Positions 4,701-46,400 of a DNA stretch of 64,000 nucleotides are shown here, piece by piece (within the stretch, counting starts at the first letter, position 1; every line of letters begins with the position of its first letter). The stretch covers positions 1,240,001 through 1,304,000 of the forward strand of contig OX392532.1 in assembly GCA_947623455.1 (NCBI GenBank). The letters run 5' to 3'. The notes below the pieces were generated by a model that was not told where the DNA came from, did no database searches, and saw nothing but the letters and a program-made list of their open reading frames with translations. A program made the translations under genes and the position numbers. The stretch is from Mimachlamys varia. Lineage: Eukaryota; Mollusca; Bivalvia; Pectinida; Pectinidae.

Positions 4701-5371
4701 TGAGCGACCAGTATGAACTTATTATTTATGTAGAAGGTACCATAGAATCTACAGGAGAGTACTGTCAGGCCCGGACCTCATATCTGCCCTCGGAAGTACT
4801 CTGGGGACACCGGTTTGACAGGCTAGAAGAGTTCGATACCGGAAACGGAAGATGGGAAGTCGACTTCGAGGGTTTCCATGATGTTGTGTATACGACTAAC
4901 ATGCGTAACAGTGCAAAGGAATTGTATGACATGAAACACAGCCCGGCCAAGGACAAGACTGATGACGACACTGCTAGTACCTATCGTAAAACACCAAGCC
5001 CTCCACTAACAGTGTCGCTACACACCATACCATACGACTCTCCGCCATCAGAGTCCGGCACGTTCCATGACGTCACAGACGAAACGACAGAACCCGAAGA
5101 AACTTCAGTAATGCAAGAAATGACGTCAGAGGATGAAATGGAAAACTACTTTCGTTCCGGAAATGAAGGCGGGATTGAATCACCAGACGGTACAGCCAGT
5201 TCAGACACAAATAATAAAGATGGCGTTTCTACAGAAATCCACGTCGACCTCGGAGACGGTAACTTAGGCGCTATTCAGGAAGAGGAGGACAGTGATGATT
5301 TAGCACAATACAAGTATGCTGATGCTGACGAGGACGATGACAAATCAGATGATGAATATCTTTCATCTTGA
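1594..5371 (+). CDS. Inward-rectifier potassium channel (Kir/KCNJ family), three coding exons
   Basis: The spliced product is 514 aa (184 + 461 + 900 nt, phases consistent). Kir channels are tetramers in the plasma membrane that pass K+ inward better than outward and set resting potential. Visible in order: cytoplasmic N-terminus (1 to about 80), M1 about 85-108, an extracellular loop with paired Cys126 and Cys158, pore loop with selectivity filter TIGYG at 146-150, M2 about 159-186, a basic PKRR motif at 190-193 where PIP2 binds in the family, then the cytoplasmic domain. Glu176 aligns with the acidic rectification-controller position of M2, which suggests appreciable rectification (inference). 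The last ~140 residues form a Ser/Thr-rich, very acidic tail not typical of vertebrate Kir proteins. The start ATG at 1594 is the first in-frame Met of exon 1; an upstream untranslated exon cannot be excluded. Which KCNJ subfamily it belongs to cannot be told from reading alone. Confidence 0.95.
1778..2480 (+). repeat. Degenerate tandem array carrying copies of the Kir exon 1 end and donor
   Basis: Directly after the exon 1 donor the intron consists of roughly a dozen diverged units of about 36-40 bp (clear to about 2250, one more near 2440). They repeat AAATACACAGGTAAGTTATA followed by an A/T-rich spacer. The first ~10 bases of that motif are the last bases of exon 1 and the rest is the start of the intron. 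Several copies keep an intact AG|GTAAGT-like donor, for example near 2030, 2050 and 2090. Confidence 0.75.
3418..3636 (+). repeat. 53-bp tandem repeat, four copies
   Basis: Four near-identical units containing GTGGTTAGGCTAACGATATA and an ACTAGTTGTACGTA segment, in Kir intron 1 shortly before exon 2. The unit does not contain exon sequence. Confidence 0.85.
3698..4158 (+). CDS. Kir channel coding exon 2 (M1, pore and M2)
   Basis: The acceptor TATTGCAG precedes 3698 and the donor CTACAG|GTAAAC follows 4158. The exon encodes residues 62 to 215, including M1, the TQTTIGYG pore signature, M2 and the PKRR juxtamembrane motif. It ends in phase 0. Confidence 0.95.
4472..5371 (+). CDS. Kir channel coding exon 3 (cytoplasmic domain and acidic tail)
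   Basis: The acceptor CCTCACAG precedes 4472 and the frame runs 299 codons to TGA at 5369-5371. The N-terminal part (IRLGDMRQSHLLDARV onward) is the conserved Kir cytoplasmic beta-domain, with TYLPSEVLWGHRF-like and EVDFEGFHDVV stretches. The distal ~140 residues are rich in Ser/Thr and then in Glu/Asp, ending EYLSS. The domain would bind PIP2 and form the cytoplasmic pore. Confidence 0.93.
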   Translation: MRLGDMRQSHLLDARVHGVLAKKHVTAEGVQYPLYLHDMEFHAQGMGEKIVLMWPLILSHKITSDSPFWNIKPADLMSDQYELIIYVEGTIESTGEYCQARTSYLPSEVLWGHRFDRLEEFDTGNGRWEVDFEGFHDVVYTTNMRNSAKELYDMKHSPAKDKTDDDTASTYRKTPSPPLTVSLHTIPYDSPPSESGTFHDVTDETTEPEETSVMQEMTSEDEMENYFRSGNEGGIESPDGTASSDTNNKDGVSTEIHVDLGDGNLGAIQEEEDSDDLAQYKYADADEDDDKSDDEYLSS

Positions 5372-10935: not shown

Positions 10936-11092
10936 AGTCATACATTTCTTATCTCTGACCTTTCGGTGAAGGTCACACTCACACTGGCCTATTGACAGTG
11001 CACTTCTCATCATCTATGGGTGGTGCAGGCATACTGACAGTTTTATTAATATATCTTTAATGGTTTAAAACTTATCACTCGGTATTATTTTT

Positions 11093-13375: not shown

Positions 13376-13459
13376 TCAGCTGAACGTTAATGAAAATGCC
13401 TTGTATCCAAAGTTTGTGCAGACATCAATCTTAGGACTGTTCCCAGCAGTACAAAGCAC
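13376..13459 (-). CDS. THOC6: THOC6 last coding exon (exon 14)
   Basis: The acceptor TATTACAG on the - strand precedes 13459 and TGA is at 13378-13376. It encodes 27 residues beginning VLCTAGNSPKIDVCTNFGYK, matching the THOC6 C-terminus. It joins exon 13 in phase 0. Confidence 0.93.
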   Translation of the reverse strand: MLCTAGNSPKIDVCTNFGYKAFSLTFS

Positions 13460-16400
13460 CTGTAATATAACAGGGAAATATCTCAATACATCATACACGG
13501 TTTAAGTACAATGAAAACATCAAATTTTATTTTTTCAATAAGCACTGTCATGGTACCAAGGGTAAAATTTTTGTTCAGTTTTTCAAAAAGTTTTAAAGTT
13601 ACTGAACAAGCTGTCAATTTCTCTGCAAGATGAATTATCATTGTCTATATACACCACATTTTGTTACTGTGTTCACACACCCTATGGTTACATTAAAAGA
13701 TATTTGACAAGTATTTACGGATCACTGTACTACTGCATGCTTTTCTTGTAAAGAGTAGTTTCCCCTTATGATCTGTCCAGTACCATCTCTATACGTACCT
13801 TGTGACTATTGAGGGCGGTGTTGACGACAACACTAAACACGTTGGTAGACATTAAACTGACCAGTACCATCTCTATACCTACCTTGTGACTATTGAGGGC
13901 GGTGTTGACGACACTAAACACGTTGGTAGACATTAAACTGACCAGTACCATCTCTATATGTACCTTGTGACTATTGAGGGCGGTGTTGACGACAACACTA
14001 AACATGTTGGTAGACATTAAACTGACCAGTACCATCTCTATACGTACCTTGTGACTATTGAGGGCGGTGTTGTAAGTACCTTGTGACTATTGAGGGCGGT
14101 GTTGACGACAACACTAAACACGTTGGTAGACATTAAACTGACCAGTACCATCTCTATATGTACCTTGTGACTATTGAGGGCGGTGTTGACGACACTAAAC
14201 ACGTTGGTAGACATTAAACTGACCAGTACCATCTCTATACGTACCTTGTGACTATTGAGGGCGGTGTTGTAAGTACCTTGTGACTATTGAGGGCGGTGTT
14301 GACGACAACACTAAACACGTTGGTAGACATTAAACTGACCAGTACCATCTCTATACGTACCTTGTGACTATTGAGGGCCGTGTTGACAACACTAAACACG
14401 TTGGTAGACATTAAACTGACCAGTACCATCTCTATACGTACCTTGTGACTATTGAGGGCGGTGTTGTAAGTACCTTGTGACTATTGAGGGCGGTGTTGAC
14501 AACAACACTAAACACGTTGGTAGACATTAAACTGACCAGTACCATCTCTATACGTACCTTGTGACTATTGAGGGTGGTGTTGTACCTACCTTGTGACTAT
14601 TGAGGGCGGTGTTGACGACAACACTATACGTACCTTGTGACTATTGAGGTTGGTGTTGTACGTACCTCGTGACTATTGAGGGCGGTGTTGTACGTACCTT
14701 GTGACTATTGAGGGCAGTGTTGTACGTACCTTGTGACTATTGAGGGCGGTGTTGACAACAACACTAAACATGTTGGTAGACATTAAACTGACCAGAACCA
14801 TCTCTATACGTACCTTGTGACTATTGAGGGCGGTGTTGACAACACTAAACACGTTGGTAGACATTAAACTGACCAGTACCATCTCTATACGTACCTTGTG
14901 ACTATTGAGGGCGGTGTTGACGACAACACTAAACACGTTGGTAGACATTAAACTGACCAGTACCATCTCTATACCTACCTTGTGACTATTGAGGGCGGTG
15001 TTGACGACACTAAACACGTTGGTAGACATTTAACTGACCAGTACCATCTCTATATGTACCTTGTGACTATTGAGGGCGGTGTTGACGACAACACTAAACA
15101 TGTTGGTAGACATTAAACTGACCAGTACCATCTCTATACGTACCTTGTGACTATTGAGGGCGGTGTTGACGACAACACTAAACACGTTGGTAGACATTAA
15201 ACTGACCAGTACCATCTCTATATGTACCTTGTGACTATTGAGGGCGGTGTTGACGACACTAAACACGTTGGTAGACATTAAACTGACCAGTACCATCTCT
15301 ATACGTACCTTGTGACTATTGAGGGCGGTGTTGTAAGTACCTTGTGACTATTGAGGGCGGTGTTGACGACAACACTAAACACGTTGGTAGACATTAAACT
15401 GACCAGTACCATCTATATACGTACCTTGTGACTATTGAGGGCGGTGTTGACAACAACACTAAACACGTTGGTAGACATTAAACTGACCAGTACCATCTCT
15501 ATACGTACCTTGTGACTATTGAGGGTGGTGTTGTACCTACCTTGTGACTATTGAGGGCGGTGTTGACGACAACACTATACGTACCTTGTGACTATTGAGG
15601 GTGGTGTTGTACGTACCTCGTGACTATTGAGGGCGGTGTTGTACGTACCTTGTGACTATTGAGGGCAGTGTTGTACGTACCTTGTGACTATTGAGGGCGG
15701 TGTTGACGACAACACTAAACATGTTGGTAGACATTAAACTGACCAGTACCATCTCTATACCTACCTTGTGACTATTGAGGGCGGTGTTGACGACAACACT
15801 AAACATGTTGGTAGACATTAAACTGACCAGTACCATCTCTATACGTACCTTGTGACTATTGAGGGCCGTGTTGACGACAACACTAAACACGTTGGTAGAC
15901 ATTAAACTGACCAGTACCATCTATATACGTACCTTGTGACTATTGAGGGCGGTGTTGTACGTACCTTGTGACTATTGAGGGCGGTGTTGACGACAACACT
16001 ATACGTACCTTGTGACTATAAAGGGCGGTGTTGTATGTACCTTGTGACTATTGAGGGCGGTGTTGTACGTACCTTGTGACTATTGAGGGCGGTGTTGTAC
16101 GTACCTTGTGACTATTGAGGGCGGTGTTGTACGTACCTTATGACTATTGAGGGCCGTGTTGTACGTACCTTGTGACTATTGAGGGCGGTGTTGTACGTAC
16201 CTTGTGACTATTGAGGGCGGTGTTGTACGTACCTTGTGACTATTGAGGGCGGTGTTGACGACAACACTATACGTACCTTGTGACTATTGAGGGCGGTGTT
16301 GTACGTACCTTGTGACTATTGAGGGCGGTGTTGACGACAACACTATACATACCTTGTGACTATTGAGGGCGGTGTTGTACGTACCTTGTGACTATTGAGG

Positions 16401-19400
16401 GCGGTGTTGTACGTACCTTGTGACTATTGAGGGCGGTGTTGTACGTACCCTGTGACTATTGAGGGCGGTGTTGTACGTACCTTGTGACTATTGAGGGTGG
16501 TGTTGACGACAACACTATACGTACCTTGTGACTATTGAGGGCGGTGTTGTACGTACCCTGTGACTATTGAGGGCGGTGTTGTACGTACCTTGTGACTATT
16601 GAGGGCGGTGTTGACGACAACACTATACGTACCTTGTGACTATTGAGGGCGGTGTTGTACGTACCTTGTGACTATTGAGGGCGGTGTTGTACGTACCTTG
16701 TGACTATTGAGGGCGGTGTTGTACGTACCCTGTGACTATTGAGGGCGGTGTTGTACGTACCTTGTGACTATTGAGGGCGGTGTTGACGACAACACTATAC
16801 GTACCTTGTGACTATTGAGGGCGGTGTTGTACGTACCTTGTGACTATTGAGGGCGGTGTTGTACTTACCTTGTGACTATTGAGGGCGGTGTTGACGACAA
16901 CACTAAACACGTTGGTGGGAGTACAAGGTATCCGAGATTTCTGGTCACCATTCACGTACCAATGATTAACGTACGGCTCACCGCCCGCAGATATAATCTG
17001 GAAAATGTTCAAGGTGGTATGAAGGAACAAATATCTGTTTTTTCACACTATATATCTTTCAGATTTTATACTTGAAAGACATTAAAACTATATACCAATT
17101 TTTCCAAATAAGCTTCAAAATAAAAACATAAACAACGGTAAAGTATTGTTGTTACATTGATTAAATAATTAAATATTTTGTCATGTAGACAGCTGTATCC
17201 ATACATGTACTTATCAAATTATGAGGAAAAATAACATTTGCATGGCTTTTTAAAAACAAACACAATATAAGCCCCGTACAATCCTAAAATATTGAAGATG
17301 TATACAAAAGATATATACTGAGATTGTTTTTTTTTTTTTGTACACAAACAGGAATTGAAAATTTAATTTGCGAGCTTTCGAAAACGTCTGTTTCCTTTGT
17401 CAAGCAAAGAGTACAATAGCCGAGTGTCGGTGTTCTGACCGCTGAAATCAGCTCACTACCCAAAATAGGGCGAGTTGGAGAAGTCAGCTGCCAAAAACGT
17501 AGCGCGACATTTCGTCCAAATGTACTCTAGTACTACAGGTAGACAGAGGGACGGGTAAGATGTTTACCCATTCCGCCCCTTATTGGATGTTAAAATAGGG
17601 TCATAAAGATGACTCAACTGGTGTCCCCCCTCGTCTCTGTTCATTGATTCACCTTCCTTCCTAATCCATATGGATTCTTTAATTTTCCTCATTCTCCAGT
17701 TTTCCTCCCTTTCCAACACTTTGGAGTTGTTCCAGTCAATGATATGGTTGTGTATGTTGGCATGGTCTGTGATAGCTGATTTGTTATATTGTTTTTCTGA
17801 TGTTTTTCTAGTATTTCTGGTGTAGACTTGCTGTTCCATGTCTTCCACGTCTTTTTGATGTTCTTTAAGACGCGTTCCAAATTTCCGACTAGTTTCACCT
17901 ATGTATGTGTGGTTGCAGCTGTTACATGGAATTTGGTAAACCACTCCAGTCTTGTCTTCCTTCTGCACTTTATCCTTCGGATGTACTAGGAGTTGTTTGA
18001 TGGTGTTGTGCAGTCGCATAAGTGTGCTGATGTGATGTTTGCGGAGCACTCTTGAAATTGCTTCCGACCCTCCCCTTATATATGGTATAGTGACCATGCC
18101 TTTGGCAATAAGGGGCGGAATGGGTAAACATCTTACCCGTCCCTCTGTCTACCTGTAGTACTAGAGTACATTTGGACGAAATGTCACGCTACGTTTTTGA
18201 CAGCTGACTTCTCCAACTCGCCCTATTTTGGGTAGTGAGCTGATTTCAGCGGTCAGAACACCGACACTCGGCTATTGTACTCTTTGCTTGACAAAGGAAA
18301 CAGACGTTTTCAAAAGCTCGCAAATTAAATTTTCAATTCCTGTTTGTGTACAAAAAAAACAAAAACAATCTCAGTATATATCATTCATACCAAACTGATG
18401 AATCTTATTCCTAGTATATAAAAGATAGTATTCTGTGGCAGTTCATCACAACTTTAATGAATGATGACATAACATAATTATCTCTAAAACTATATCTCAT
18501 ATTAAAGTATTTAAGTATAAGATTGATATACAAATCTGACTTTCGACAAATATACATAGTGAAGATATTGTAATGTTTTTTGCCTCTGACATTAAAAATA
18601 CTTTAAACATCACAAGTTAATAAACTTCCCTATTGCCAGTTAACAACCACATCCCACTAAACTATTATATTATTAATGGTGGTATTTCCCCTCCAGCTTG
18701 TTAAATATCCACCCAGCACATACCGTATCCTCGTAGAACATGACGGTCTTCTGACAAACAGCTGGAGTATCAAACACTGTGGTGGCCTCTAATGATCGTA
18801 GGTGCCATAGCGACATCTTAGGACCGCCCCCACACACCTGTTAACAGGTAAATCATTCAATGATTGGGTAATAGTTAACAGGTAACTCATTCAATGATTG
18901 GGTTCTAGTCCTCAAAGGCAGAAGGTATTCCTGTGTTTCTAAAATTCATACTTTGTACCTACAATAATTCAAGTGTTGTCAAGTTTTAATTTTAATGCAG
19001 TGGTTCAATTTTTTTTATATAGATTTTATGAAACTGAAAAATTATATGAATAATTTGTCCTTATCACAAAATAAAATGCAATAATGTTAAAGTTCATGTA
19101 TTTTTCATTTAATTTATAATGGAAATACATATTACATGTATTGGCTAAAATCATTTTTTTTTAAAAAGGTGTAGAAGTTTGGAAGACATTACATGATGTA
19201 ATAACTAATGTATGGTTTATTCCTTTCTTCATATTTTGCCATTTGTTTAATCATTTTGAGTTCGTAATATAGTTTTATAGGTGCTTCTGTATTTTGAATT
19301 TTTTCCTCAACTTCTCTTTTGATAGAAGAATAGCCCGTACCAAACTGGCTAACTGCAAGTATACTTGAAGTATACTTCAAGTATAAATAAAGTATACTTG

Positions 19401-22400
19401 GTATACTTTTAGGACTGGATATTTGACAAGTATTAGGGAAGTATACTTGAAGTATACTTGACTAATACATGAAGTATACTTGCTGAAACTTTGTCATTAT
19501 TTCAACATTTACGCTAACACTTTCTATACTTGTCAGGACTTAGAAAATTTTCTGTGCCTGTATCAGCAAAATGTTAAAGTCCATGTTCGTAATTTTGTCA
19601 GATTTTTTTTAAAAAATCATATCTTCGCTATTTATTGGTTGATTTTTGTCATCTACGTCTCATATTTCACAAAATTTCTTGTAGAAAACCTATCCTTGTA
19701 TATTTTTGATTTTTTTTTTCAAATTTATTTTTAAACATCATTATTTATTTCAGATTAATTTCCTTAAATAACAATCATTTCAAAATGTACAAAATGCTTT
19801 AGAATCAATAAGATATATTATGACTCAAAAAAAATTAAAAAAAAAATTCAAATTACAAGTCTATAATATATTTAATAATCTACAGATCCAAATTGTCAAT
19901 GTGGATACTTATCCTATCTCTTAAAAAAGTACGGTCATAAAGCCTATAAATAAACAGTCGATTATAAATTAAAAATTATAAACAAAACGAAACCGAAAGT
20001 TGCTACATGTTGTGCACTTCCGCGATCAGCAAAACGTTCAATTCTCAAATTCACGAAACGACATATAACCTATGCGAGAACGTCGAAATGTTTCCCGATC
20101 ATGGCTACCGTTCGTTCAAAATAGTTTGCGAAATTCAACATTATCTATGCCCTCGTTTGAGACAAAACCACGCGTCATTTTGGGTCCAATTTGTTTTCGT
20201 TACATCAGAGTCTTTTCGATGTTTGACACCAACGACGCAAACTCTAGATCAGCGCCACCTACATTTGTACTTCCGGATTATGCGCGCTTAGTTTAACCGT
20301 CAACAGGACCAATTTAGTTTGAACGATTGAACCGTTTAAAGCCGTTATGAGGTATCTGTCTGACGGTACTTTCAGACGAGGTTTGCATGAACATTTGCAG
20401 GTCAGCCGAATTTATACCAGAACATGTTACATTTAAAGACGGGCACATACAGCGAGCAAACATGTCTGGGTGTTTTGTTGAAAGAACGATATTGTTCACG
20501 GTCACCTCGGAATCGTGCTTGGATATTATGCCTAGATGGATTTTTTACTTCATCTATTTACTACAAGTTGTAAGCAAAGTTTGTGTTAGAGGAACGAGGA
20601 AGTATGCTGCCCTTGACAAGACAAGACTGTCACAAGTCGAGAGTTTTGTACCCGGTAGGAAGGGGACAAGATGGCAGCCAGAAAAGTTCGACAAAGGTAA
20701 CGTTACACTTGATAATTTCGTTTTCCAAGCGAATATGCACGACTCTTTTTTTTCTTGCCCTTATCGAGGTGGTTTGTAATAATTGTCGTGAAACATGTTG
20801 GTTATCGGCTGTGATAAATATTTCTGTCAAGTTTCAATTCAATGTGATTTGGTTCAGTACTTAATTATAATGCAGGGATTTGGGGCAGGATTTGGGGATT
20901 TTTAACCATATTTTTCCTGAAAATCTCATTGAAAATTCATAATTGTATAACTTAATAATTTATATTGAAAAATCGCATAGATATTTTGCTGATCCAATAA
21001 AATCCCTCAAATTCTCCCGATAGGTTTTAAGAGTCAGAATTATCCCTGGTAAGACAGAGTGGTGTGCCAAAATTCTGTCATTTTTTTTATTTTGCTTTAT
21101 ATTCTTTGTATTTTCGCCTTTTTTAATGAATTTTTCTAGTGAGTGTTAGCTTATTTTCAGAAGACACTGATACATTTGTATTTAACATGTTCTGATCATG
21201 ACAGTTCATTCCAAATTTTCACTGTTGATTTTGACAATTTTTTCTAAGCATACTGGTGGCCGACCAGTTCTGGCCAAGTACTAGTTGTCGCCAATGGCAC
21301 TGTAATTTGTATATTTCTTAGTTAATTACCAATTTACACTGGAATTTATAACATGTCAATATATAATACGATACATGTCGTTTTTTTATTTTGAAATATC
21401 TTTTTCTTGTTTTACAGAGTCGGGTTTGCCATAAACAAGTACCCTGGAGTAGCAGATCTTGACCATGATGAGTGGGTATTGATCCAGGCAGTGAACGGAA
21501 AATTTCGAAGACTCAAGAATGACATTGAATAACTCGATTCAATGAGTGAAGTTTTATATATATTTGTGAATGTTGAGTATCTGTGGTTGTAAATAGACAT
21601 TACCTGCATGTGGAAATATTTGATTGACAGCACTTGTTCGTGGATGTGTAATTATAATCAACAGGATAAGGAAAATTCACAACCAGACCAAAGTTGGAAA
21701 CCGAGACCTTCTGAACTCAAGATAGATGCTGAACCGATAGAGTGATCTGGTCGCCAAATTCATTGATAATCTTAATCCTTTAAATATCTACTAGATGTAG
21801 GCAGTACCTGTGGATGTATTGTAAAGACAGTATGTGTATGTACAGTATACTGTAGGTACACGATGGATGTGAATTCAAAGACAGAGTCTGTGTATGTGGA
21901 TGTATAATATATAAAATCAATTGTCTTTGGACCTGGTATACTATAATTCAGATATACACTATTTAAATATGTTTTGTGAATATATCAATGAAATATCTTC
22001 CTTTTAATTTGATTCATATTAACTGTATAACATGTTTTGTGAATATAATGAAAATAATCATAATTATTTCAATCTGGTAGTTGATGTATATCTTTTGAAT
22101 GATGCATACATTTATAAATTCATTACTGATATAAAGCTACTCTAGACTTCATGTTTGTCATTAATTCATTCTTTTTGCAAGTATACTTGGAGAATACTTT
22201 AAGTATACTTGATATATACTTGTAACTTTATACTTTCCAGCATTACTTCAGCTATATGGACATTGTACTTGAAGTATACTTGCAAGCATACTTGCAAGTA
22301 TACTTCAAGTATACTTGCATGTATACTTGACAATAGACACCAAGTATACTTGAAGTATACTTCAAGTATACTTGAACTATACTTGCAAGTATTCTTCAAG

Positions 22401-25400
22401 TAGGCAGTACTCCAAGTATACTTCAAGTATACTTTTAGCCTAATACTTGCACCTAATTTGCATACAAAATCAAAATACTTTAAGTATACTTGAAGTATAG
22501 TCCAAAACTTATACTTTAAGTATACTTTAAGGCTATACTTTAAGTATACTTTAAGTATTAGTTAATTCCGTAAGGGAAGTTACTGTGCTTTTAAGCATAC
22601 AAGAATCAAACTATTCATTCTCTGATCGATAGGATCAACCCTGGAAAAAACTGCCAATAAATTCAAAGAAATTCTTAAACAATCAACCCACCAACCAATC
22701 ATCTCCAGTCTCCATAGCTACACATCCCAGCCACTTTCCAAACTCAGGTCGGGCACATAACTAAAATATGGTAAAATCAAAACATATGTTACTGTTGGGA
22801 CACATACACAATGGAGCTGAACTATGGGAAAATAATTAAAAACATAAATATTCGAAAAATTAACATGAATTCCTGCAGTTGCGATTTAGTATCGAGAAAT
22901 AATTTGAAAAGTTTACATTGAGGTAGGGTCATGTAGAAAATTTATATATGAAAAAAACAGGAAACATTCAAATATAAATAAGGAGCCTACATGCTTGTAC
23001 CGGTATATGTATTTCTTGACCCCTCAATTTTAATAAGTCATTATTGCATCGCAACCTTTCTTTTTTTTAAACAAGTAAACAGGACACAGAAATCAGGTGA
23101 CATTTATGTCTTTGTGCACATCTGATAACATTCCTGTAAATCAGGTTAATTACTGGCAATTCTCAAGTTATTTATGTGAATATTGCTCCAATTATTGTTA
23201 TAGAGAACACCTCCTACCTGGTTTTTGTATGGTTCTAGTGTGTGCTCCAATTATTGCTTTAGAGAACACTTCCTACCTGGTTTTTGTATGGTTCTAGTGT
23301 GTGCTCCAATTATTGTTATAGAGAACACCTCCTACCTGGTTTTTGTATGGTTCTAGTGTGTGCTCCAATTATTGCTATAGAGAACACCTCCTACCTGGTT
23401 TTTGTATGGTTCTAGTGTGTGCTCCAATTATTGTAATAGAGAACACCTCCTACCTGGTTTTTGTATGGTTCTAGTGTGTGCTTCAATTATTGCTATAGAG
23501 AACACTTCCTACCTGGTTTTTGTATGGTTCTAGTGTGTGCTCCAATCATTGTAATAGAAAACACCTCCTACCTGGTTTTTGTATGGTTCTAGTGTGTGCT
23601 CCAATTATTGCTATAGAGAACACCTCCTACCTGGTTTTTGTATGGTTCTAGTGTGTGCTCCAATTATTGTTATAGAGAACACCTCCTACCTGGTTTTTGT
23701 ATGGTTCTAGTGTGTGCTCCAATTATTGTAATAGAGAACACCTCCTACCTGGTTTTTGTATGGTTCTAGTGTGTGCTCCAATTATTGTTATAGAGAACAC
23801 CTCCTACCTGGTTTTTGTATGGTTCTAGTGTGTGCTCCAATTATTGCTTTAGAGAACACTTCCTACCTGGTTTTTGTATGGTTCTAGTGTGTGCTCCATT
23901 TATTGCTATAGAGAACACCTCCTACCTGGTTTTTGTATGGTTCTAGTGTGTGCTCCAATTATTGTTATAGAGAACACTTCCTACCTGGTTTTTGTATGGT
24001 TCTAGTGTGTGCTCCAATTATTGTAATAGAGAACACCTCCTACCTGGTTTTTGTATGGTTCTAGTGTGTGCTCCAATTATTGTTATAGAGAACACCTCCT
24101 ACCTGGTTTTTGTATGGTTCTAGTGTGTGCTCCAATTATTGCTATAGAGAACACCTCCTACCTGGTTTTTGTATGGTTCTAGTGTGTGCTCCAATTATTG
24201 CTGTAGAGAACATCTACTACCAGGTTTTTGTATGGTTCTAGTGTGTGCTCCAATTATAGCTATAGAGAACACCTCCTACCTGGTTTTTGTATGGTTCTAG
24301 TGTGTGCTCCAATTATTGCTGTAGAGAACATCTACTACCAGGTTTTTGTATGGTTCTAGTGTGTGCTCCAATTATAGCTATAGAGAACACCTCCTACCTG
24401 GTTTTTGTATGGTTCTAGTGTGTGCTCCAATTATTGTTATAGAGAACACTTCCTACCTGGTTTTTGTATGGTTCTAGTGTGTGCTCCAATTATTGTTATA
24501 GAGAACACCTCCTACCTGGTTTTTGTATGGTTCTAGTGTGTGCTCCAATTATTGTAATAGAGAACACCTCCTACCAGGTTTTTGTATGGTTCTAGTGTGT
24601 GCTCCAATTATTGCTATAGAGAACACCTCCTACCTGGTTGCTGTATTGTTCTAGTGTGTGCTCCAATTATTGCTATAGAGAACACCTCCTACCTTGTTTT
24701 GGTATGGTTCCAGTGTGTGCTCCAATTATTGTAATAGAGAACACCTTATACCTTGTTTTGGTATGGTTCTAGTGTGTGCTCCAATTATTGCTGTAGAGAA
24801 CATCTCCTACCTGGTTTTTGTATGGTTCTAGTGTGTGCTCCAATTATTGTTATAGAGAACACCTCCAACCAGGTTTTTGTATGGTTTTAGTGTGTGCTCC
24901 AATTATTGTAATAGAGAACACCTTATACCTTGTTTTGGTATGGTTTTAGTGTGTGCTCCAATTATTGTAATAGATAACACCTCCTACCTGGTTTTTGTAT
25001 GGTTCTAGTGTGTGTTCCAATCATTGCTATAGATAACACCTCCTACCTGGTTTTTGTATGGTTCCAGTGTGTGCTCCAATTATTGTAATAGAGAACACCT
25101 TATACCTTGTTTTGGTATGGTTCTAGTGTGTGCTCCAATTATTGCTATAGAGAACACCTCCTACCTGGTTGCTGTATTGTTCTAGTGTGTGCTCCAATTA
25201 TTGCTATAGAGAACACTCCTGCCTGGTTTTTGTATGGTTCTAGTGTGTGCTCCAATTATAGCTATAGAGAACACCTCCTACCTGGTTTTTGTATGGTTCT
25301 AGTGTGTGCTCCAATTATTGCTATAGAGAACACCTCCTACCTGGTTTTTGTATGGTTCTAGTGTGTGCTCCAATTATTGTAATAGAGAACACCTCCTACC

Positions 25401-34400: not shown

Positions 34401-37400
34401 GCCAGGGAAAAGTTGTAAATCAGTTGACCTTGACCTAGATACCCGACCTATGACCTTGTCACTCACCAACTGTTCCCCTGTCTCCAGGTCCCAGACATAC
34501 ACATTGTTGTCACCACAACCAGCATATAACCGGCACTGACTTTCCTGTCAAAAATAACAAAACATATATCGGTAGTTGACACTGACTTTCCTGTCAATAA
34601 TAACAAAACATATATCGGTAGTTGACACTGACTTTCCTGTCAATAATAACAAAACATATATCGGTAGTTGACACTGACTTTCCTGTCAATAATAACAAAA
34701 CATATATCGGTAGTTGACACTGACTTTCCTGTCAATAATAACAAAACATATATCGGTAGTTGACACTGACTTTCCTGTCAATAATAACAAAACATATATC
34801 GGTAGTTGACACTGACTTTCCTGTCAATAATAACAAAACATATATCAGTAGTTGACACTGACTTTCCTGTCAATAATAACAAAACATATATCGGTAGTTG
34901 ACACTGACTTTCCTGTCAATAATAACAAAACATATATCAGTAGTTGACACTGACTTTCCTGTCAATAATAACAAAACATATATCGGTAGTTGACACTGAC
35001 TTTCCTGTCAATAATAACAAAACATATATCGGTAGTTGACACTGACTTTCCTGTCAATAATAACAAAACATATATCGGTAGTTGACACTGACTTTCTGTC
35101 AATAATAACAAAACATATATCAGTAGTTGACACTGACTTTCCTGTCCATAAGGAAAACAAAACATATATCGGTAGTTGACACTGACTTTCCTGTCAATAA
35201 TAAAAACAAAATTTTGGCGGATATCTTTTCAGGCAAGTTCTGAACATGATTTTTAAAACTATTACTTATCATGTCTCGTTACTAGTCTATTATTAGAGTT
35301 TATTTCAAAATTTTTGTAGTCTGAGAAAGCACCAATCCAGCACATGCATGTCCATGTTACATCCATTACTGACTGTATACACCTCTATAATATGTTACCT
35401 GTTTGTCTATGATGATGGTGTTGACTTCTGTTTGATAGAACGGACCTCTGAAACAGATCAAAACATGTCCTTAATGTGTTTATTAATGACGTCTGTAAAA
35501 TGTACCACTGCCTTTACATGTTAAAATAAATGAGTCTGAAAGGTTTTTGGTTTTATTTTAAGACTTTTCTTGAATCTGGTGCAAGTCTGACAGCAGAAAG
35601 ACACTGTTGACACAATTTTTTAGATGGGTTATGCAAATGAATAGGATTTTCAAATTCCAGTCTTCTGATGAAAAATCCTGCTGTCACATAGCAAATTTTG
35701 TTATAAATTCTTATAACTAAGAAAATATTTAATACTGAATATTGAGTAGCATGTATTAATAACTTGTTGAACAGGGCTCTTAGGATTATTTAGCACAGTT
35801 TAAAACAATGACATTAATCAATCTACGCCCGCTGCTGAATTACACGAATGTGACCTTTTTTATAAGTGTATCAGTGAGTGAATTAAAAACAATCATATTT
35901 GTTACAGATCAAAATTCCAGGAGAGCAATAAATGTTTTGTTAAACTCATGATACTTACTTCTTAGGTATTGCCCATGACCAAATCACCTTTGGAGACTGA
36001 AAAAGACACAACTTTCAAAATTACCAACAAGTTGGCATAGTGTCCTTTTTTTTCAGTTGTTATACTATACATCTACACTGTGTACTCTAAGATAAATTCT
36101 TAGATTTACTCAAAATTAAAATCATATACAACCGTGAACTGTCCTTATCTTATAAATATGTCAAGGGAAATAACCCTCAAATGAAAATTAATTTGGTGAC
36201 ATCGCAAGTGATCATCTGCCAGAACAATATCACATTCTATATTCAGCTGACATCACATCACAGCTGGATAACATACTAAGCATATACTGTGGAACTTCGT
36301 TACCTTGAACTTATGTTACCCAAAATACTTTAATTTGAAGTATTTCGTTGCCACTTCAGTTGAAAGTAGTAAACTTGATGATCAAGATTGTAAGACTTAG
36401 TCTCAATAAAGTCAATGGACAAAGTTGCTCTCTGATCTTTAATACTTTCACAATAAAAAATTTTACACTTTGATTTTAATGACAATCTTATCATATTAGT
36501 AATGGATTTTGTAATCCATGATGGAAATTGGAACGGACAAACCAATCTTGTTTTAAAATATAATCGATCATCAGCCCATCACTGCCGACCCGATAAAATA
36601 CAGAGAAATGGCAGAGAGCAAAGTACAGATAAGATAAAATACAGAGAAATGGGAGAAAGCAAAGTACTGATAAGATAAAATACAGAGAAATGGCAGAGAG
36701 AAAAGTACTGATTAGATAAAATACAGAGAAATGGGAGAAAGCAAAGTACTGATTAGATAAAATACAGAGAAATGGGAGAAAGCAAAGTACTGACTCAATA
36801 AAATACAGAGAAATGGGAGAAAGCAAAGTACTGATTAGATAAAATACAGAGAAATGGGAGAGAGCAAAATACTGATTAGATAAAATACAGAGAAATGGGA
36901 GAGAGCAAAGTACTGACTTGATAAAATACAGAGAAAAGGGAGAGAGCAAAGTACTGACTCGATATAATACAGAGAAATGGGAGAGAGCAAAGTACTGACT
37001 CGATATAATACAGAGAAATGGGAGAGAGCAAAGTACTGATTAGATAAAATACAGAGAAATGGGAGAAAGCAAAGTACTGATTAGATAAAATACAGAGAAA
37101 TGGGAGAGAGCAAAATACTGATTAGATAAAATACAGAGAAATAGAAGAGAGCAAAGTACTGACTTGATAAAATACAGAGAAAAGGGAGAGAGCAAAGTAC
37201 TGATTAGATAAAATACAGAGAAATGGGAGAAAGCAAAGTACTGATTAGATAAAATACAGAGAAATGGGAGAGAGCAAAGTACTGATTAGATAAAATACAG
37301 AGAAATGGGAGAGAGCAAAGTACTGATTAGATAAAATACAGAGAAATGGGAGAAAGCAAAGTACTGATTAGATAAAATACAGAGAAATGGGAGAGCAAAG

Positions 37401-40400
37401 TACTGACTTGATAAAATACAGAGAAATGGGAGAAAGCAAAGGACTGACTTGATAAAATACAGAGAAATGGGAGAGAGCAAAGTACTGATTAGATAAAATA
37501 CAGAGAAATGGGAGAAAGCAAAGTACTGATTAGATAAAATACAGAGAAATGGGAGAGAGCAAAGTACTGATTAGATAAAATACAGAGAAATGGGAGAGAG
37601 CAAAGTACTGATAAGATAAAATACAGAGAAATGGGAGAGCAAAGTACTGATTAGATAAAATACAGAGAAATGGGAGAGAGCAAAGTACTGATTAGATAAA
37701 ATACAGAGAAATGGGAGAGAGCAAAGTACTGATAACATAAAATACAGAGAAATGGGAGAGAGCAAAGTACTGACTTGATAAAATACAGAGAAATGGGAGA
37801 GAGCAAAGTACTGACTTGATAAAATACAGAGAAATGGGAGAGAGCAAAGTACTGATTAGATAAAATACAGAGAAATGGGAGAGAGCAAAGTACTGATTAG
37901 ATAAAATACAGAGAAATGGGAGAAAGCAAAGTACTGATAAGATAAAATACAGAGAAATGGGAGAGAGCAAAGTACTGATTAGATAAAATACAGAGAAATG
38001 GGAGAAAGCAAAGTACTGATTAGATAAAATACAGAGAAATGGGAGAGCAAAGTACTGATTAGATAAAATACAGAGAAATGGGAGAGAGCAAAATACTGAT
38101 TAGATAAAATACAGAGAAATGGGAGATAGCAAAGTACTGATTAGATAAAATACAGAGAAATAGAAGAGAGCAAAGTACTGACTTGATAAAATACAGAGAA
38201 AAGGGAGAGAGCAAAGTACTGACTCGATATAATACAGAGAAATGGGAGAAAGCAAAGTACTGATTAGATAAAATACAGAGAAATGGGAGAGAGCAAAGTA
38301 CTGACTTGATAAAATACAGAGAAATGGGAGAAAGCAAAGTACTGATTAGATAAAATACAGAGAAATGGGAGATAGCAAAGTACTGATTAGATAAAATACA
38401 GAGAAATAGAAGAGAGCAAAGTACTGACTTGATAAAATACAGAGAAAAGGGAGAAAGCAAAGTACTGATTAGATAAAATACAGAGAAATGGGAGAGAGCA
38501 AAGTACTGATTAGATAAAATACAGAGAAATGGGAGAGAGCAAAGTACTGATAAGATAAAATACAGAGAAATGGGAGAGAGCAAAGTACTGATAAGATAAA
38601 ATACAGAGAAATGGGAGAGAGCAAAGTACTGACTTGATAAAATACAGAGAAATGGGAGAGAGCAAAGTACTGACTCGATAAAATACAGAGAAATGGGAGA
38701 GAGCAAAGTACTGACTTGATAAAATACAGAGAAATGGGAGAAAGCAAAGTACTGATAAGATAAAATACAGAGAAATGGGAGAGAGCAAAGAACTAATAAG
38801 ATAAAATACAGAGAAATGGGAGAGAGCAAAGTACTGATAAGATAAAATACAGAGAAATGGGAGAGAGCAAAGTACTGATTAGATAAAATACAGAGAAATG
38901 GGAGAGAGCAAAGTACTGATAAGATAAAATACAGAGAAATGGGAGAAAGCAAAGTACTGATTAGATAAAATACAGAGAAATGGGAGAAAGCAAAGTACTG
39001 ATTAGATAAAATACAGAGAAATGGGAGAAAGCAAAGTACTGATTAGATAAAATACAGAGAAATGGGAGAGAGCAAAGTACTAATAAGATAAAATACAGAG
39101 AAATGGGAGAGAGCAAAGTACTGATAAGTTAAAATACAGAGAAATGGGAGAAAGCAAAGTACTGATTAGATAAAATACAGAGAAATGGGAGAAAGCAAAG
39201 TACGGCTACATTTAGGGTAGCAACAACAGTATAACACAGTATACCTTGTTCAGTATATAATACAGAGAAATGGGAGAGAGCAAAGTACTGATAAGATAAA
39301 ATACAGAGAAATGGGAGAGAGCAAAGTACTGATTAGATAAAATACAGAGAAATGGGAGAGAGCAAAGTACTGATTAGTTAAAATACAGAGAAATGGGAGA
39401 GCAAAGTACTGATTAGATAAAATACAGAGAAATGGGAGAGCAAAGTACTGATTAGATAAAATACAGAGAAATGGGAGAGAGCAAAGTACGGCTACATTTA
39501 GGGTAGCAACAACAGTATAATACAGTGTACCTTGTTCAGTATATCTGTCCACTTCCATGCACATATGGGTCCATTTCCACCGCTGAAAATAATAATGATA
39601 TAGTAAACATAGTGTGTAACAATATTTATAATATGTGGATGCCTTTCCATTGTTTCTTGTTTACCTAGAACTTTGTTAAAATGAACTATATTGTGTGTAT
39701 TTCACTCATTATGACATAACACTGTTTACATATAGAATCAACATGTAAGGCTATTCCAGTAAAATATTTACCCCGCCCCAGGACTCCAGGTTTTGTTAAG
39801 GGCTAGTCCAGTAAAATATTTACCCCGCCCCAGGACTCCAGGTTTTCTTAAGGGCTAGTCCAGTAAAATATCTACCCCACCCCAGGACTCCAGGTTTTGT
39901 TAAGGGCTAGTCCAGTAAAATATTTACCCCACCCCAGGACTCCAGGTTTTGTTAAAGGCTAGTCCAGTAAAATATTTACCCCGCCCCAGGACTCCAGGTT
40001 TTCTTAAGGGCTATTCCAGTAAAATATCTACCCCACCCCAGGACTCCAGGTTTTGTTAAGGGCTATTCCAGTAAAATATCTACCCCACCCCAGGACTCCA
40101 GGTTTTGTTAAGGGCTATTCCAGTAAAATATCTACCCCACCCCAGGACTCCAGGTTTTGTTAAGGGCTATTCCAGTAAAATATCTACCCCGCCCCAGGAC
40201 TCAAGGTTTTGTTAAGGGCTAGTCCAGTAAAATATCTACCCCACCCCAGGACTCCAGGTTTTGTTAAGGGCTATTCCAGTAAAATATCTACCCCGCCCCA
40301 GGACTCCAGGTTTTGTTAAGGGCTAGTCCAGTAAAATATCTACCCCGCCCCAGGACTCCAGGTTTTGTTAAGGGCTATTCCAGTAAAATATCTACCCCAC

Positions 40401-43400
40401 CCCAGGACTCCAGGTTTTGTTAAGGGCTATTCCAGTAAAATATCTACCCCACCCCAGGACTCCAGGTTTTGTTAAGGGGTACCACCCATAAAATTTATTT
40501 AATAAATTACATAGAAGCAATAGGAATGAAATCCAACCATGGGTAGAGGTGGTTTATTTTGGAGATGTTTTAATGGAATAGCCCTTAACATTTCTGATCA
40601 ACTCAATCTTAATTAGAATAGATAGCTGATATATGTACATCTAACAAACATTGAGTTCTTGGAAATAAATTCATTTTAAACCTCAAATCATAACCAAGTC
40701 TATACACTCTGCAACCAATACCTTGCAGAGGAAGATGGATATTACTATTTTAAATAGTGGTGTTATAAGCAAAATTTTGTATGTATTTGTACATTTCAAT
40801 TTAAAACAAGAGATCCCAGAGGGATCTTGGCGCCCACCATCAAATGATCTAAGTTTGTTTTTTGAAAGATGGTTCTTTTCTCTTCTTTCGATTGTCTCTT
40901 AGGTGTTGATTAAGTGTGAGCAGAGACTCTGGTGGGACACAGATGCATTTTTTTGTTTTTTTTTTTGTGAATTACATTGTCGTTTCCTTATTCTTAGCAT
41001 AGCTAGGCACCAGGAGGAACCTACATATGAAATTTGTGAAAGTTCCCTTCAGTATATTCTCAGAAATAGGGATAACAAACTTCAATTGTCAAAATCCAAG
41101 ATGGCTGCCTGTCGGCCATGTTCTTTTCCGATCTGTCCAAAAATGGAATATGCACAACTAGGGACCAAGGTGAACCAACAAATGAAATTTGAGAAAGATA
41201 CCTTCAGTACTTTCTTAGAAATAGCGATAACAAACTTCAATTGTCAAAATCCAAGATGGCTGCCTGTCGGCCATATTGTTTTCTGATCTGTCCCAAAATG
41301 GAATATACACAACTAGGGACCAAGGTGAACCAACACATGAAATTTGAGAAAGATACCTTCAGTAATTTCTGAGAAATAGCCATAACGAACTTCAATTGTC
41401 AAAATCCGAGATGGCTGCCTGTCGGCCATGTTGTTTTTGGATTGGTCCCAAAATGCAATATGCATAACTACACACCAAGGGGAACCTACACATGAAATTT
41501 GAGAAAGATCCATTCAGTACATTCTCAGAAATAGCGATAACAAAGTTCAACTGTCAAAATCCAAGATGGCTGCCTGTCGGCCATGTTGTTTTCGGATTGG
41601 TCAAAAAATGCAATATGCATAACTAGGCACCAACGGGAACCTACACATGAAATTTGAGAAAGATCCATTCAGTACATTCTCAGAAATAGGGATAACAAAG
41701 TTCAAATGTCAAAATCCAAGATGGCTGCCTGTCGGCCATCTTGAATTCAGATCGGTCCCAAAATGGAATATACACAACTACGGACCAAGGTGAACCAACA
41801 CATGAAATTTGAGAAAGATACCTTCAGTACTTTCTTAGAAATAGCGATAACAAACTTCAATTGTCAAAATCCAAGATGGCTGCCTGTCGGCCATGTTGTT
41901 TTTGGATTGGTCCCAAAATGCAATATGCATAACTACACACCAAGGGGAACCTACACATGAAATTTGAGAAAGATCCATTCAGTACATTCTCAGAAATAGC
42001 GATAACAAAGTTCAACTGTCAAAATCCAAGATGGCTGCCTGTCGGCCATGTTGTTTTCGGATTGGTCCCAAAATGCAATATGCATAACTAGGCACCAACG
42101 GGAACCTACACATGAAATTTGAGAAAGATCCATTCAGTACATTCTCAGAAATAGGGATAACAAAGTTCAAATGTCAAAATCCAAGATGGCTGCCTGTCGG
42201 CCATCTTGAATTCAGATCGGTCCCAAAATGGAATATGCACAACTAGGGACCAAGGTGAACCAACACATGAAATTTGAGAAAGATCCATTCAGTACATTCT
42301 CAGAAATAGGGATAACAAAGTTCAAATGTCAAAATCCAAGATGGCTGCCTGTCGGCCATCTTGAATTCAGATCGGTCCCAAAATGGAATATGCACAACTA
42401 GGGACCAAGGTGAACCAACACATGAAATTTGAGAAAGATTCCTTCGGTACTTTATGAGAAATAGCGATAACAAGAATTGTTTACGGACGGACTAACGGAT
42501 GGACTGACGGACGGACGGACGACGGACCACGGACGCAGGGCGATTTGAATAGCCCACCATCTGATGATGGTGGGCTAATTACGGCTATTACACAAAATAC
42601 AGACTAGTACTAAATATTAATACCTGGCCCCCTATGGCTCTGCCCCGGCTGGGTATTAAATTGGTCCCATGCCTCGTAATGGAGCAAGCCCGGTGTTATT
42701 CACACCAGGGCAATTTTTGCATCACTCATCGGCCTATTGGTTCCCATCAATAAACATATTTAAATCATAAACCAACTCATTCAAAATCTGTGCCTAGTGT
42801 TTTCGCTCCAGGTTCAACTGGGGGTACATTCGCGCTAAAATTAAATCTGGCACATTTAGTTTGAGGGGTTCAGACTTACCTGGCCGAGACTAAATTGCTG
42901 ACTATTGCTATGCGTTTGTTTACCGTGGAATATTTCTGTGCCTTCTGTACTGGTTCAACCTGTAGCGCGAATATACCCTGGTTCAACCTGTAGCATGAAT
43001 ATACCCTGGTTCAACCGGTAGCGCGAATATACCCTGGTTCAACCTGTAGGGCAAATATACCCTGGTAGCCGCATGTACCCCAGGTTTAGAGTAACATATA
43101 AATTGTATTATCATGGCTGAGTCAATCCCACACCTAGAAACAGCCAGGTATTGTATATATGGTGACATGAGACATGTTTTCTGCGATAATTACCTGATTA
43201 AGAAGATGTCTGATGAAGCTAGACAAAATATGGCTCCTTCCTCTGAAGCTGTGAAGATGAAATACAAATTATAGATATCTTGTAATAGTGTTATTGTCAA
43301 TTTGAATGCTTCCATATTAATGTTTTGTATCAAACGCAATTGCTATAAATATAGTGGCTGTATTTATCTCAATATCCAAGAACAGTGGTGTTCTTTATTG

Positions 43401-46400
43401 TGGTCTAGCTAGATGCATGATGTCGTCAACATGTTTTGACAGCTTTGCGGTCGTCATCAGGACTTGAAAGTTACATGAACCAATCAAAAACAAACATTTA
43501 AATGTGTTTCTCTATAACAGAGATAGGTGTCAGACTATACACAAAATGTATAGGTTACCTCTGAAACGTACCTTTAAGTAGACAGGTATCAGACTTTACA
43601 CAGGGATTATAGGTTATCTGTGATACATGCCTTTATAGGAGAAGACAGGTGTCAGACTTTACACAAAGATTATAGGTTACCTGTGATACGTACCTTTATA
43701 GGAGTAGAGAGGTGTCAGACTGTACATGAAGATTATAGGTTACCTGTGATACGTACCTTTAAGTAGACAGTTGTCAGACTTTACATGAGGATTATAGGTT
43801 ACCTGTGATACATACCATTATAGGAGTAGACAGGTGTCAGACTTTACACGAAGATCATAAGTTATCTGTGATACATACCTTTATAGGAGGAGACAGGTGT
43901 CAGACTTTACACAAAGATTATAGGTTACCTGTGATACGTACCTTTATAGGAGAAGACAGGTGTCAGACTTTACACGAAGATCATAAGTTATCTGTGATAC
44001 ATACCTTTATAGGAGGAGACAGGTGTCAGACTTTACACAAAGATTATAGGTTACCTGTGATACGTACCTTTATAGGAGTAGAGAGGTGTCAGACTTTACA
44101 TGAAGATTATAGGTTATCTGTGATACGTACCTTTAAGTAGACAGGTGTCAGACTTTACACGAAGATTATAGGTTACCTGTGATACGTACCTTTAAGTAGA
44201 CAGTTGTCAGACTTTACATGAGGATTATAGGTTACCTGTGATACATACCATTATAGGAGTAGACAGGTGTCAGACTTTACACAAAGATTATAGGTTACCT
44301 GTGATACGTACCTTTATAGGAGTAGACAGGTGTCAGACTTTACACAAAGATTATAGGTTATCTATGATACGTACCTTTATAGGAGTAGACAGATGTCAGA
44401 CTTTACACAAAGATTATAGGTTATCTGTGATACGTACCTTTAAAGGAGTAGACAGGCTTCCAAAGGGCTTCTGTACTGTCTGGTGACAAAGCTGTCGTCA
44501 GACTTCAACAATAAATAAACAAAACTACAGCATACATGTATATATCTATGTGTTACGAATATAACAAGATGCCAGGAGGTTATGCTAATACTCTGACTTA
44601 CCAAATCATTCTGTTTGTCTTTACAAACGTACCAGTAATTGTAATCTTCAATCAATTTTATATTAGTAATTGGTCTAGATTATTTAATTTATCAACAAAC
44701 TACATGAAAATTAATTTACTTCTCTGTTATGACGCTAAATTATTCATTTTTTCCCCTTCTCCAGTACAGACTTAACATACAATGAATAAGGCACTGTACA
44801 AGAATAGCATTTTGTTTTGCATCAAAGTTTGCAAATGCGCAACCAGTTAAAACATGAAAGCATATGGTGGTCGCATCTTCAGCTAAACAATTTTTTATTT
44901 CAATCTAAGCCATGCATATAATTATGTAATATATATATATCTGTTTTGCATTCAGTTACATATTTTTTTATGTTCAGAGACAAAAATTCAACAAAAATTA
45001 ACATGGCTTTTTTTTGTGAAAGACAAAATTTAGGGGAAGGACTTAACTACAGGCACCCACCCTATTCCAAGAACACTTGCCAAAGTGGGGAGTGGGCTTA
45101 TTTGCGAGAAGTGGCTTATTTACAGTAAACTACAGTATATACTTTTACACTCACACTTGTGGAATATGTATGTTATCAAATTGCTGAATAGGAAAATAAG
45201 ACTATTTAACATTCTCTTGATATATAAATCCATTAAACTTTACACTGTACTGTTCATTATTGATGTTTTTAAATAGACGTTCTGAGTTTACCTGAAAATC
45301 GCAATACAACCATGGTTATTTGCTGCAGCCAAGAACTTCCCACAGGGTGAAAAACACTGTGCAAATACAGATGTGTGGTACTGTTTCCGTGCTGCTAGAC
45401 TCCGATCTTGCTGAAATATCAAGAATATTTACATAGAAGCATATATTTGCTCTGAAAAATTATAAGTTGTAGATCAAGGGTAAGACAAAGATGTAATCAT
45501 TGGATGAAGACTGTGAATTGAGTGCTGGAGAGGGCTAGCCCAGTAGACCGACAGACTCTGACATCCGATAAATATCGGGCTGGGTCCGAGTCAGAGCCCT
45601 TGGGACTACATGCCCAGTTGTGTGGATGATATGCACACACTGTATACGTATCACATCTTGGTAATTTTGGTGTTTTGCCAGACTACAACTGTAGCTGGTT
45701 TCAAAATGTTGTATGCATGCATGGCTGTCATTTACTGCCGGACTCTCTCTCTGGTTCCAGGTACATTTTTTCGCCCCTAAATCCTGTTTGCATTATTTTT
45801 TTTTTCACCCTAAATAATTCATTTAAGTCAGGGATAACTTCATCTTCGAATTAGTCTTTTCTACGACTTCAGAAAGCAATTTTCTGATTTTTTTTTTTTT
45901 TTTTTTGGCATTCAAAATCAATTTTATGTACATTGTAAAGAAAATTTGGAGTTTCGAATACATCATTATTTTGTTCACAAACATTTACATTGAATTCAAT
46001 TTTAGAAATAAACAAGAATGTTTATTATAGTGCTGTGTGAGACAATTTTAAAATTGCATTACTTGTTTACTAATACCCAGTAAGACCCATGGCCATACAT
46101 CAACTAGGTAATCAATAATCTCAGATATCACACAAAACAACTATGAATAAAATATTCTAATACTATTCATTCAATAGTCAAACTTTTACATTTGTAAAAG
46201 ATGTGCATTGATAAGGTTGCCTTACAAGCGTGTGCTGTTGGGAATTTCCCTTTAGCTCTGTCAGTAGAGCATCGGGCTGGAGAGCCAAGGGTCGCCGGTT
46301 CGAGCCCCAGCGACGACACTACCTTTATAATTATCACTTTTCCTCGTCCTATTAAACATTATATCTGTTAAAATGTTTAGTCTGTCAATCGACGCTAGTT

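What the first reader, a model, noticed from the sequence alone, without database searches (positions are those of the whole stretch)
13776..44437. Tandem arrays in THOC6 introns are built from exon edges plus splice sites
Five donor edges (exons 3, 5, 9, 10, 13) and one acceptor edge (exon 8) of THOC6 adjoin a tandem array containing the edge itself: 10-48 exon bases joined to the intact GT or AG. Six of about 13 introns is far beyond chance for unrelated minisatellites. The periods differ (about 32-84, 59, 78, 46, 41, 54-63 bp), so these are separate events of one kind. A neutral route is likely: a tandem duplication across a splice junction leaves the mRNA unchanged if the exon-proximal site is used, so such duplications are tolerated and can expand. 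A functional alternative is that dozens of extra U1-binding sites per intron protect the long pre-mRNA from premature cleavage, or tune THOC6 output. I know of no named feature class for this.
Basis: partly seen in the sequence, partly recalled or inferred. Interest (0 to 1): 0.88.

Follow-up and report, generated by a model that had tools for sequence, protein, structure and literature searches.

The report
Splice-edge minisatellites in scallop THOC6
In this scallop gene several introns have been inflated by tandem copies of the exon's own end plus its splice site, a kind of repeat known as a mirage in lancelets; it looks mostly tolerated rather than useful, but it is unusually frequent here and offers a way to study how introns grow.

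Summary
THOC6 (minus strand, 14 exons, 338 aa, 326 identical to the scallop Ylistrum balloti) has exon-edge copies at 6 of 26 splice edges, in 6 of 13 introns. Five are clean arrays: donors of exons 3, 9, 10, 13 and the acceptor of exon 8. Exon 5 is weak: its edge occurs twice and the 41-bp unit lacks it. Random placement gives 1-2 straddling arrays against 6 seen.

The genome shows it elsewhere: 7 of 82 sampled exons (kinesin 7 of 56, TCP1 0 of 26). That total is not clearly above random placement (317 of 4000); donors are (35 of 4000). THOC6 is an outlier.

Their structural criteria are met. Donor columns are not clearly more conserved, so U1 decoys are unsupported. Best reading: near-neutral mirage minisatellites, locus-private where tested (2 of 2), tolerated because the exon-proximal site is used; that use is inferred. 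Interest moderate.

The parts
13376..47019 (-). THOC6 gene from start codon to stop, 14 exons: 47019-47011, 45410-45292, 44502-44438, 43248-43194, 39582-39531, 35996-35959, 35447-35399, 34544-34467, 29902-29800, 28866-28814, 22760-22692, 18837-18724, 16997-16869, 13459-13376
   Evidence: Continuous 338-aa frame with GT/AG at the junctions; 326 of 338 identical to Ylistrum balloti; PDB 7apk_F THO complex subunit 6 E=6.5e-84; the strong matches of a genome search all lie at this locus
43521..44456 (-). Array at the exon 3 donor, unit 63 bp, 19 bp of exon included; 14 further edge copies, 13 with GT
39245..39544 (-). Exon 5 donor edge in two copies 286 nt apart inside a compound repeat; the neighbouring 41-bp array (36592-39489) does not itself contain the edge in its unit
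34534..35203 (-). Array at the exon 8 acceptor, unit 46 bp, 11 bp of exon included; 13 further gapless copies, all with AG, plus one with a one-base deletion seen in the sequence
29589..29841 (-). Array at the exon 9 donor, unit 78 bp, 3.2 copies by TRF, 42 bp of exon included
23184..28843 (-). Array at the exon 10 donor, unit 59 bp x 96, 30 bp of exon included; 94 of 95 further copies keep GT; fills 93% of intron 10
13773..16905 (-). Array at the exon 13 donor, interleaved 32- and 84-bp units, 37 bp of exon included in the TRF span; 61 of 61 further copies keep GT; fills 91% of intron 13
1594..5371 (+). Kir (inward rectifier K+ channel) gene, exons 1594-1777, 3698-4158, 4472-5371
   Evidence: Complete frame; Pfam IRK 3.7e-41 and IRK_C 1.6e-50
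1768..2273 (+). Decayed array (about 36 bp x 14, 69% matches) at the Kir exon 1 donor, containing the exon end ACACAG|GTAAGT; 11 further edge copies, 9 with GT

Best explanation
These are mirage-type minisatellites. A short tandem duplication (about 30-100 bp) happens to span a splice junction. The mRNA is unchanged as long as the exon-proximal site is still used, so the extra copies sit in the intron as near-neutral DNA and grow by slippage or unequal exchange, inflating the intron. Shown: the anatomy, the intact splice dinucleotides, locus-private arrays (2 of 2 tested, by a search that scores only its best candidates), no clear extra conservation at the donor columns, recurrence elsewhere in the genome. 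Inferred: that the exon-proximal site is used, that growth is by slippage or unequal exchange, and that the donor excess arises because decoy donors downstream of an exon are better tolerated than decoy acceptors upstream of one.
For: Edge copies at 6 of 26 THOC6 edges and 1 of 4 Kir edges. Unit periods differ between the edge arrays, so events are separate. 180 of 184 donor copies keep GT (sum over six donor arrays, Kir included). Donor or acceptor columns conserve about like the rest of the unit: E3 0.941 versus 0.928, E9 1.000 versus 0.952 (about 4 units), E10 0.969 versus 0.963, E8 acceptor 0.982 versus 0.993. The E13 and E10 arrays matched only their own place in the 975-Mb genome. Use of the neighbouring copy would give a premature stop 329-886 nt before the last junction for E3, E5, E8, E9 and E10 (5 of 6 THOC6 edges; E13 would instead end in the last exon at 345 aa) and after 64 aa in Kir, so correct choice should dominate. 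In E13 0 of 61 copies, and in Kir 1 of 11, score as high as the authentic donor; the authentic E8 acceptor has five T directly before GACAG, against two or none in the 13 gapless copies. The duplicated block at E10 is bounded by the same 5 bases, GAGCA, on exon and intron side. Same anatomy in 7 of 82 sampled exons of the genome. In amphioxus, Adh3 data and globin RT-PCR suggest that mirages do not disturb regular splicing.
Against: In E10 77 of 95, in E3 10 of 14, in E9 2 of 2 and in E5 1 of 1 copies score as high as or higher than the authentic donor, so site strength does not explain the choice there. No RNA evidence was available. Tolerance alone does not predict the donor excess (12 of 97 donors, 2 of 97 acceptors, Fisher P=0.010; 11 and 2 if only TRF straddles are counted, P=0.018) nor 6 of 13 introns in one gene versus 7 of 82 sampled exons (P=0.002; 5 of 13 by TRF straddle, P=0.010; the gene was picked because it looked striking). 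The GT columns themselves are invariant in the E10 and E13 sets, though 6 of 53 and 16 of 30 neighbouring column pairs are as invariant (copies there were chosen by similarity). In the E10 array, variants in the exon-derived part fall 36, 22, 15 on codon positions 1, 2, 3, which I do not explain. Divergence along the array shows no trend in E10, and in E13 the exon-proximal copies are the closest to consensus, unlike the diverged edge units described for BflGb6.
Confidence: 0.8

Rival explanations
1. Donor edges are mutational hotspots for minisatellite birth in this genome (for example through transcription- or splicing-linked breaks), so the donor excess reflects biased origin and not only tolerance.
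For: 6 donors and 1 acceptor in the window, 6 and 1 in the independent sample; pooled 12 of 97 versus 2 of 97, P=0.010 (11 versus 2 by TRF only, P=0.018). Donor straddles in the sample exceed placement, 6 versus 1.9, 35 of 4000. THOC6 is over-represented.
Against: A purely selective filter on acceptor arrays gives the same asymmetry; total straddling in the sample is not clearly above random (317 of 4000); kinesin alone does not separate donors from acceptors (6 of 56 versus 1 of 56, P=0.11); 0 of 26 TCP1 exons.
Confidence: 0.3
2. The arrays are functional U1-binding decoys that protect the long pre-mRNA from premature cleavage or tune THOC6 output.
For: Dozens of donor-like sites with intact GT (180 of 184) in a gene whose product acts in mRNA export (family knowledge, not from a call).
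Against: Donor columns are not clearly more conserved than other columns, and in the E13 array 22 of 23 blocks are no more variable than the donor block; one THOC6 array is at an acceptor; the same structure occurs in kinesin and Kir genes.
Confidence: 0.06
3. Ordinary minisatellites that touch exon edges by chance in a repeat-rich genome.
For: In the sample the total, 7, is not clearly above the placement mean of 3.9 (317 of 4000; kinesin alone 165 of 3000); 8 of 13 merged arrays in THOC6 do not straddle an edge.
Against: In the window 6 of 15 arrays straddle, versus means of 1.07-1.79 (0 to 27 of 5000); donor straddles exceed the null in the sample too (35 of 4000).
Confidence: 0.12
4. The arrays are assembly artefacts.
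For: No reads were available to me; tandem arrays are where assemblies fail.
Against: Units carry distinct variants, periods differ between introns, and similar arrays occur on other contigs.
Confidence: 0.03

Closest known systems
'Mirage' minisatellites of amphioxus (Adh3; globins BflGb6, BflGb9; also PGBD5 and troponin C as cited) - PMC3087553 section 16 read in full, PMC3902484 one passage; the original Adh report (NAR 2002) seen only as a reference, not held
   Same: Minisatellite-like tandem copies spanning an intron/exon boundary, at either the 5' or 3' boundary, many copies with AG/GT; unit lengths in the same range (10-72 and 150-160 bp there)
   Different: Mollusc instead of cephalochordate; up to 96 copies and 5.7 kb (BflGb6: 3 and 6 units in two haplotypes); six introns of one gene affected; splicing and length polymorphism not tested here
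[quoted passage not shown] title seen in a reference list; paper not held; gene assignment recalled)
   Same: By its title, a minisatellite supplying several splice donors
   Different: Details not read; one gene
Tandem repeats at exon-intron boundaries of human genes in segmental duplications (PMC2812944, outline and passages)
   Same: Variable repeats at exon-intron boundaries that change intron structure
   Different: Reported as producing novel introns or alternative splicing; here the ancestral reading frame is intact if exon-proximal sites are used
Intron gain by tandem genomic duplication (PMC3443670, passages)
   Same: Duplication of a segment that carries a splice signal
   Different: There an exonic AGGT segment is duplicated to make a new intron; here introns lengthen. 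Whether any THOC6 intron is new was not tested

Membership tests
[quoted passage not shown]
   Edge copies at 6 of 26 THOC6 edges (exon 5 only one extra copy) and 1 of 4 Kir edges
Mirage minisatellites | Both 5' and 3' boundaries can be affected | tested here: met
   5 donors and 1 acceptor in THOC6; 6 donors and 1 acceptor in the kinesin sample
Mirage minisatellites | Many copies retain AG/GT splice signals | tested here: met
   GT in 180 of 184 donor copies; AG in 13 of 13 gapless acceptor copies
Mirage minisatellites | Regular splicing is not disturbed | not testable with these tools
   No RNA data; the ancestral frame is intact when exon-proximal sites are joined
Mirage minisatellites | Length instability between haplotypes or tissues | not testable with these tools
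   One THOC6 locus found in the assembly
Mirage minisatellites | Concerted evolution inside the array, edge units excluded | tested here: inconclusive
   Mean column conservation 0.93-0.99 in four arrays, but first and last copies are not clearly more diverged in E10 and E13
Introner-type mobile introns | Near-identical copies dispersed in other genes | tested here: not met
   E13 and E10 arrays matched only their own place (2 of 2 answered; the search scores only the best candidates and skips common words)
Intron gain by tandem genomic duplication | A new intron position created by the duplication | not tested
   Intron positions of THOC6 in other species were not available

The most novel reading that the evidence does not exclude
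In this scallop lineage splice donors are preferred birthplaces of minisatellites, a process strong enough to build 10.5 kb (31%) of a 33.6-kb gene from arrays seeded at its own exon edges, so that exon-edge duplication is a leading engine of intron growth and of raw material for new exons and introns in molluscs.
Probability: 0.25. Interest if true: 0.68.

Novelty: new member of a known kind. Interest (0 to 1): 0.5.

Why it matters
How introns grow and how the spliceosome picks one of dozens of near-identical sites are open questions. An intron with about 95 further copies of its own donor is a natural test of exon definition. If the sampled rate holds, mirages are not a lancelet oddity but a recurrent route of intron expansion in animals with repeat-rich genomes.

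Tried and rejected
Selection on donor copies: tested by column conservation; not supported. Dispersed element: rejected for E13 and E10; the same test on the E3 array and on the 155-bp array did not complete. Array-encoded peptide as an annotated protein: one open stretch of the E13 array (window 15036-15347) found no homologue at E<=0.001 among 152 candidates. Structured RNA: no Rfam match at gathering score in the window. Papers on scallop or bivalve cases: none recognised in the listings of searches, which cover only an open-licence library. The bounding repeat of the founding block could be read cleanly only for E10; the E9, E3, E13 and Kir tails are ambiguous.

Limits of the genome sample: of 131 kinesin matches I dropped 21 (near-identical paralogs on C10, 7.99-8.95 Mb); of the 110 kept, DNA was held for 56. 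The set is the 30 best matches plus one granted batch of 14 regions, not a random draw. Exon edges were predicted from the domain match and a recalled donor weight matrix plus a simple pyrimidine score, not from annotation; arrays touching other exons in these stretches were not counted as straddling. TCP1: 26 of 52 matches examined, in four regions chosen for holding many exons. The rule 'at least 8 bp of exon, period >=15' was set after seeing the window, and the 60-bp cap after seeing the first kinesin count (the cap removed none of the seven). Kinesin alone: null means 1.74 donors and 1.83 acceptors, total >=7 in 165 of 3000, donors >=6 in 11 of 3000. In one search five loci were put in the wrong orientation; rebuilt the set without that step. 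The window counts use a probe (exon 5 included), the sample counts use TRF straddles; one search repeats the tests with TRF straddles only.
Full report
What was checked. I rebuilt THOC6 from the minus strand: 14 exons with GT/AG junctions and a continuous 338-aa frame. The protein matches human THO complex subunit 6 in the PDB (E=6.5e-84) and is 326 of 338 identical to the scallop Ylistrum balloti, from which I infer that the window is from a pectinid scallop. In the 975-Mb assembly the strong THOC6 matches all lie at this locus; two weak ones elsewhere (33% identity) look like other WD40 genes.

Edge copies. A 24-base probe over each edge recurs in the adjoining intron at 6 of 26 THOC6 edges: donors of exons 3, 5, 9, 10 and 13 and the acceptor of exon 8. 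Shuffled probes never recurred (20 per edge). Counting with a 20-base probe, the six donor arrays of the window (THOC6 and Kir) hold 184 further copies, 180 with GT: E3 13 of 14, E5 1 of 1, E9 2 of 2, E10 94 of 95, E13 61 of 61, Kir 9 of 11. The acceptor array has 13 gapless copies, all with AG. Exon 5 is the weak case: its edge occurs twice, 286 nt apart, and the 41-bp unit does not contain it.

A case outside the finding. The plus-strand gene at 1594-5371 is an inward rectifier K+ channel. Its exon 1 ends in ACACAG|GTAAGT and runs into an older, decayed array of about 36-bp units at 1768-2273 with the same edge. So both genes mapped in this window carry the feature. Genes in the 47-64 kb part were not mapped.

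Chance. Fifteen merged arrays lie in the two mapped genes and 6 straddle an edge. Random non-overlapping placement gives means of 1.07, 1.39 and 1.79 for three limits on exon overlap, with 6 or more in 0, 4 and 27 of 5000 runs (an earlier version without intron 1 gave a mean of 1.4 and 4 of 4000).

Genome-wide sample. The own genome became reachable. Of 131 kinesin matches, 56 had DNA in hand (32 stretches, 203,540 bp, 74 merged arrays). Seven of these 56 exons have an array over their edge, periods 41-105 bp and 1.9 to 31 copies; 6 are donors and 1 is an acceptor. Further edge copies keep GT or AG in all counted cases except C8:31177503, where 12 of 20 do. TCP1 exons gave 0 of 26, with 5 arrays. 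Together 7 of 82 exons and 79 arrays; random placement gives 1.9 donors plus 2.0 acceptors; total 7 or more in 317 of 4000, donors 6 or more in 35 of 4000. So the structure occurs elsewhere in the genome, the overall excess is unproven in this sample, and the donor excess is supported. Pooled with the window, 12 of 97 donors and 2 of 97 acceptors are affected (P=0.010; 11 and 2 by TRF straddles only, P=0.018). THOC6, 6 of 13 introns, exceeds the sample rate (P=0.002; 5 of 13 by TRF only, P=0.010), with the caveat that it was picked for looking striking.

How it most likely works. The exon parts of the arrays are coding sequence largely conserved in Ylistrum, so the exon came first. Duplication over the junction leaves the message intact if the exon-proximal site is used. 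Had the neighbouring copy been used, premature stops would follow at E3, E5, E8, E9, E10 and in Kir, while E13 would give a 345-aa frame-shifted end. In E13 and Kir the authentic donor is the strongest or tied with one copy, and the E8 acceptor has the longest T run next to GACAG; in E10, E3, E9 and E5 many copies equal or exceed the authentic donor (donor matrix recalled, not from a call), so choice there must rest on position or exon definition, which is inference. Donor columns are not clearly protected: E3 0.941 against 0.928 elsewhere, E9 1.000 against 0.952 on about 4 units, E10 0.969 against 0.963, E8 acceptor 0.982 against 0.993; the block test gives 19 of 46 for E10 and 22 of 23 for E13. 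GT is invariant in both of those sets, as are 6 of 53 and 16 of 30 neighbouring column pairs. This speaks against strong selection on the decoys but cannot exclude weak selection. Arrays make up 77-93% of introns 3, 5, 7, 10 and 13 and 23% of intron 9. At exon 10 the duplicated block is bounded by GAGCA on both sides, as expected from slippage or exchange at a short direct repeat; one clean example only. The arrays at E13 and E10 matched nowhere else in the genome.

Known kind. [quoted passage not shown] A lancelet PGBD5 paper repeats the term (PMC3902484, passage). A human minisatellite with multiple splice donors is known to me by title. The arrays here meet the three structural criteria I could test; splicing and length instability could not be tested and concerted evolution was inconclusive. 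New, as far as the papers I could search go, are the phylum, the size, and the recurrence within one gene.

Noticed in passing
   Followed up: yes
window 19334-22578 and 30991-34210: A 3.27-kb direct duplication, 96.6% identical, lies in THOC6 introns 11 and 8; probably a mobile element or local copy.
   Followed up: partly
window 17327-18364 (-): Intron 12 holds a frame with a weak GIY-YIG match (E=6e-4, below Pfam's cut-off) flanked by 259-bp inverted repeats, 98% complementary; looks like a Penelope-type element (recalled resemblance).
   Followed up: partly
window 9276-12557 and 41003-42473: Arrays of 113-178 bp units (with longer periods also listed) sharing AAGATGGC / GGCCATCTTGGAT-like motifs, not at exon edges of mapped genes.
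   Followed up: no
window 3424-3637: A 53-bp x 4 array ends 60 bp before the Kir exon 2 acceptor without containing the edge.
   Followed up: partly
window 47389-47550 (+): Start of an unidentified gene (54-aa frame read, no Pfam match) opposite the THOC6 start, possibly a shared promoter.
   Followed up: partly
G000:C14:17929186-17930582: A kinesin exon acceptor with 31 copies of a 45-bp unit, the longest of the seven edge arrays of the sample.
   Followed up: partly
G000:C10:7.99-8.95 Mb: About five near-identical kinesin-motor gene copies in a cluster (21 match rows, dropped from the sample).
   Followed up: no
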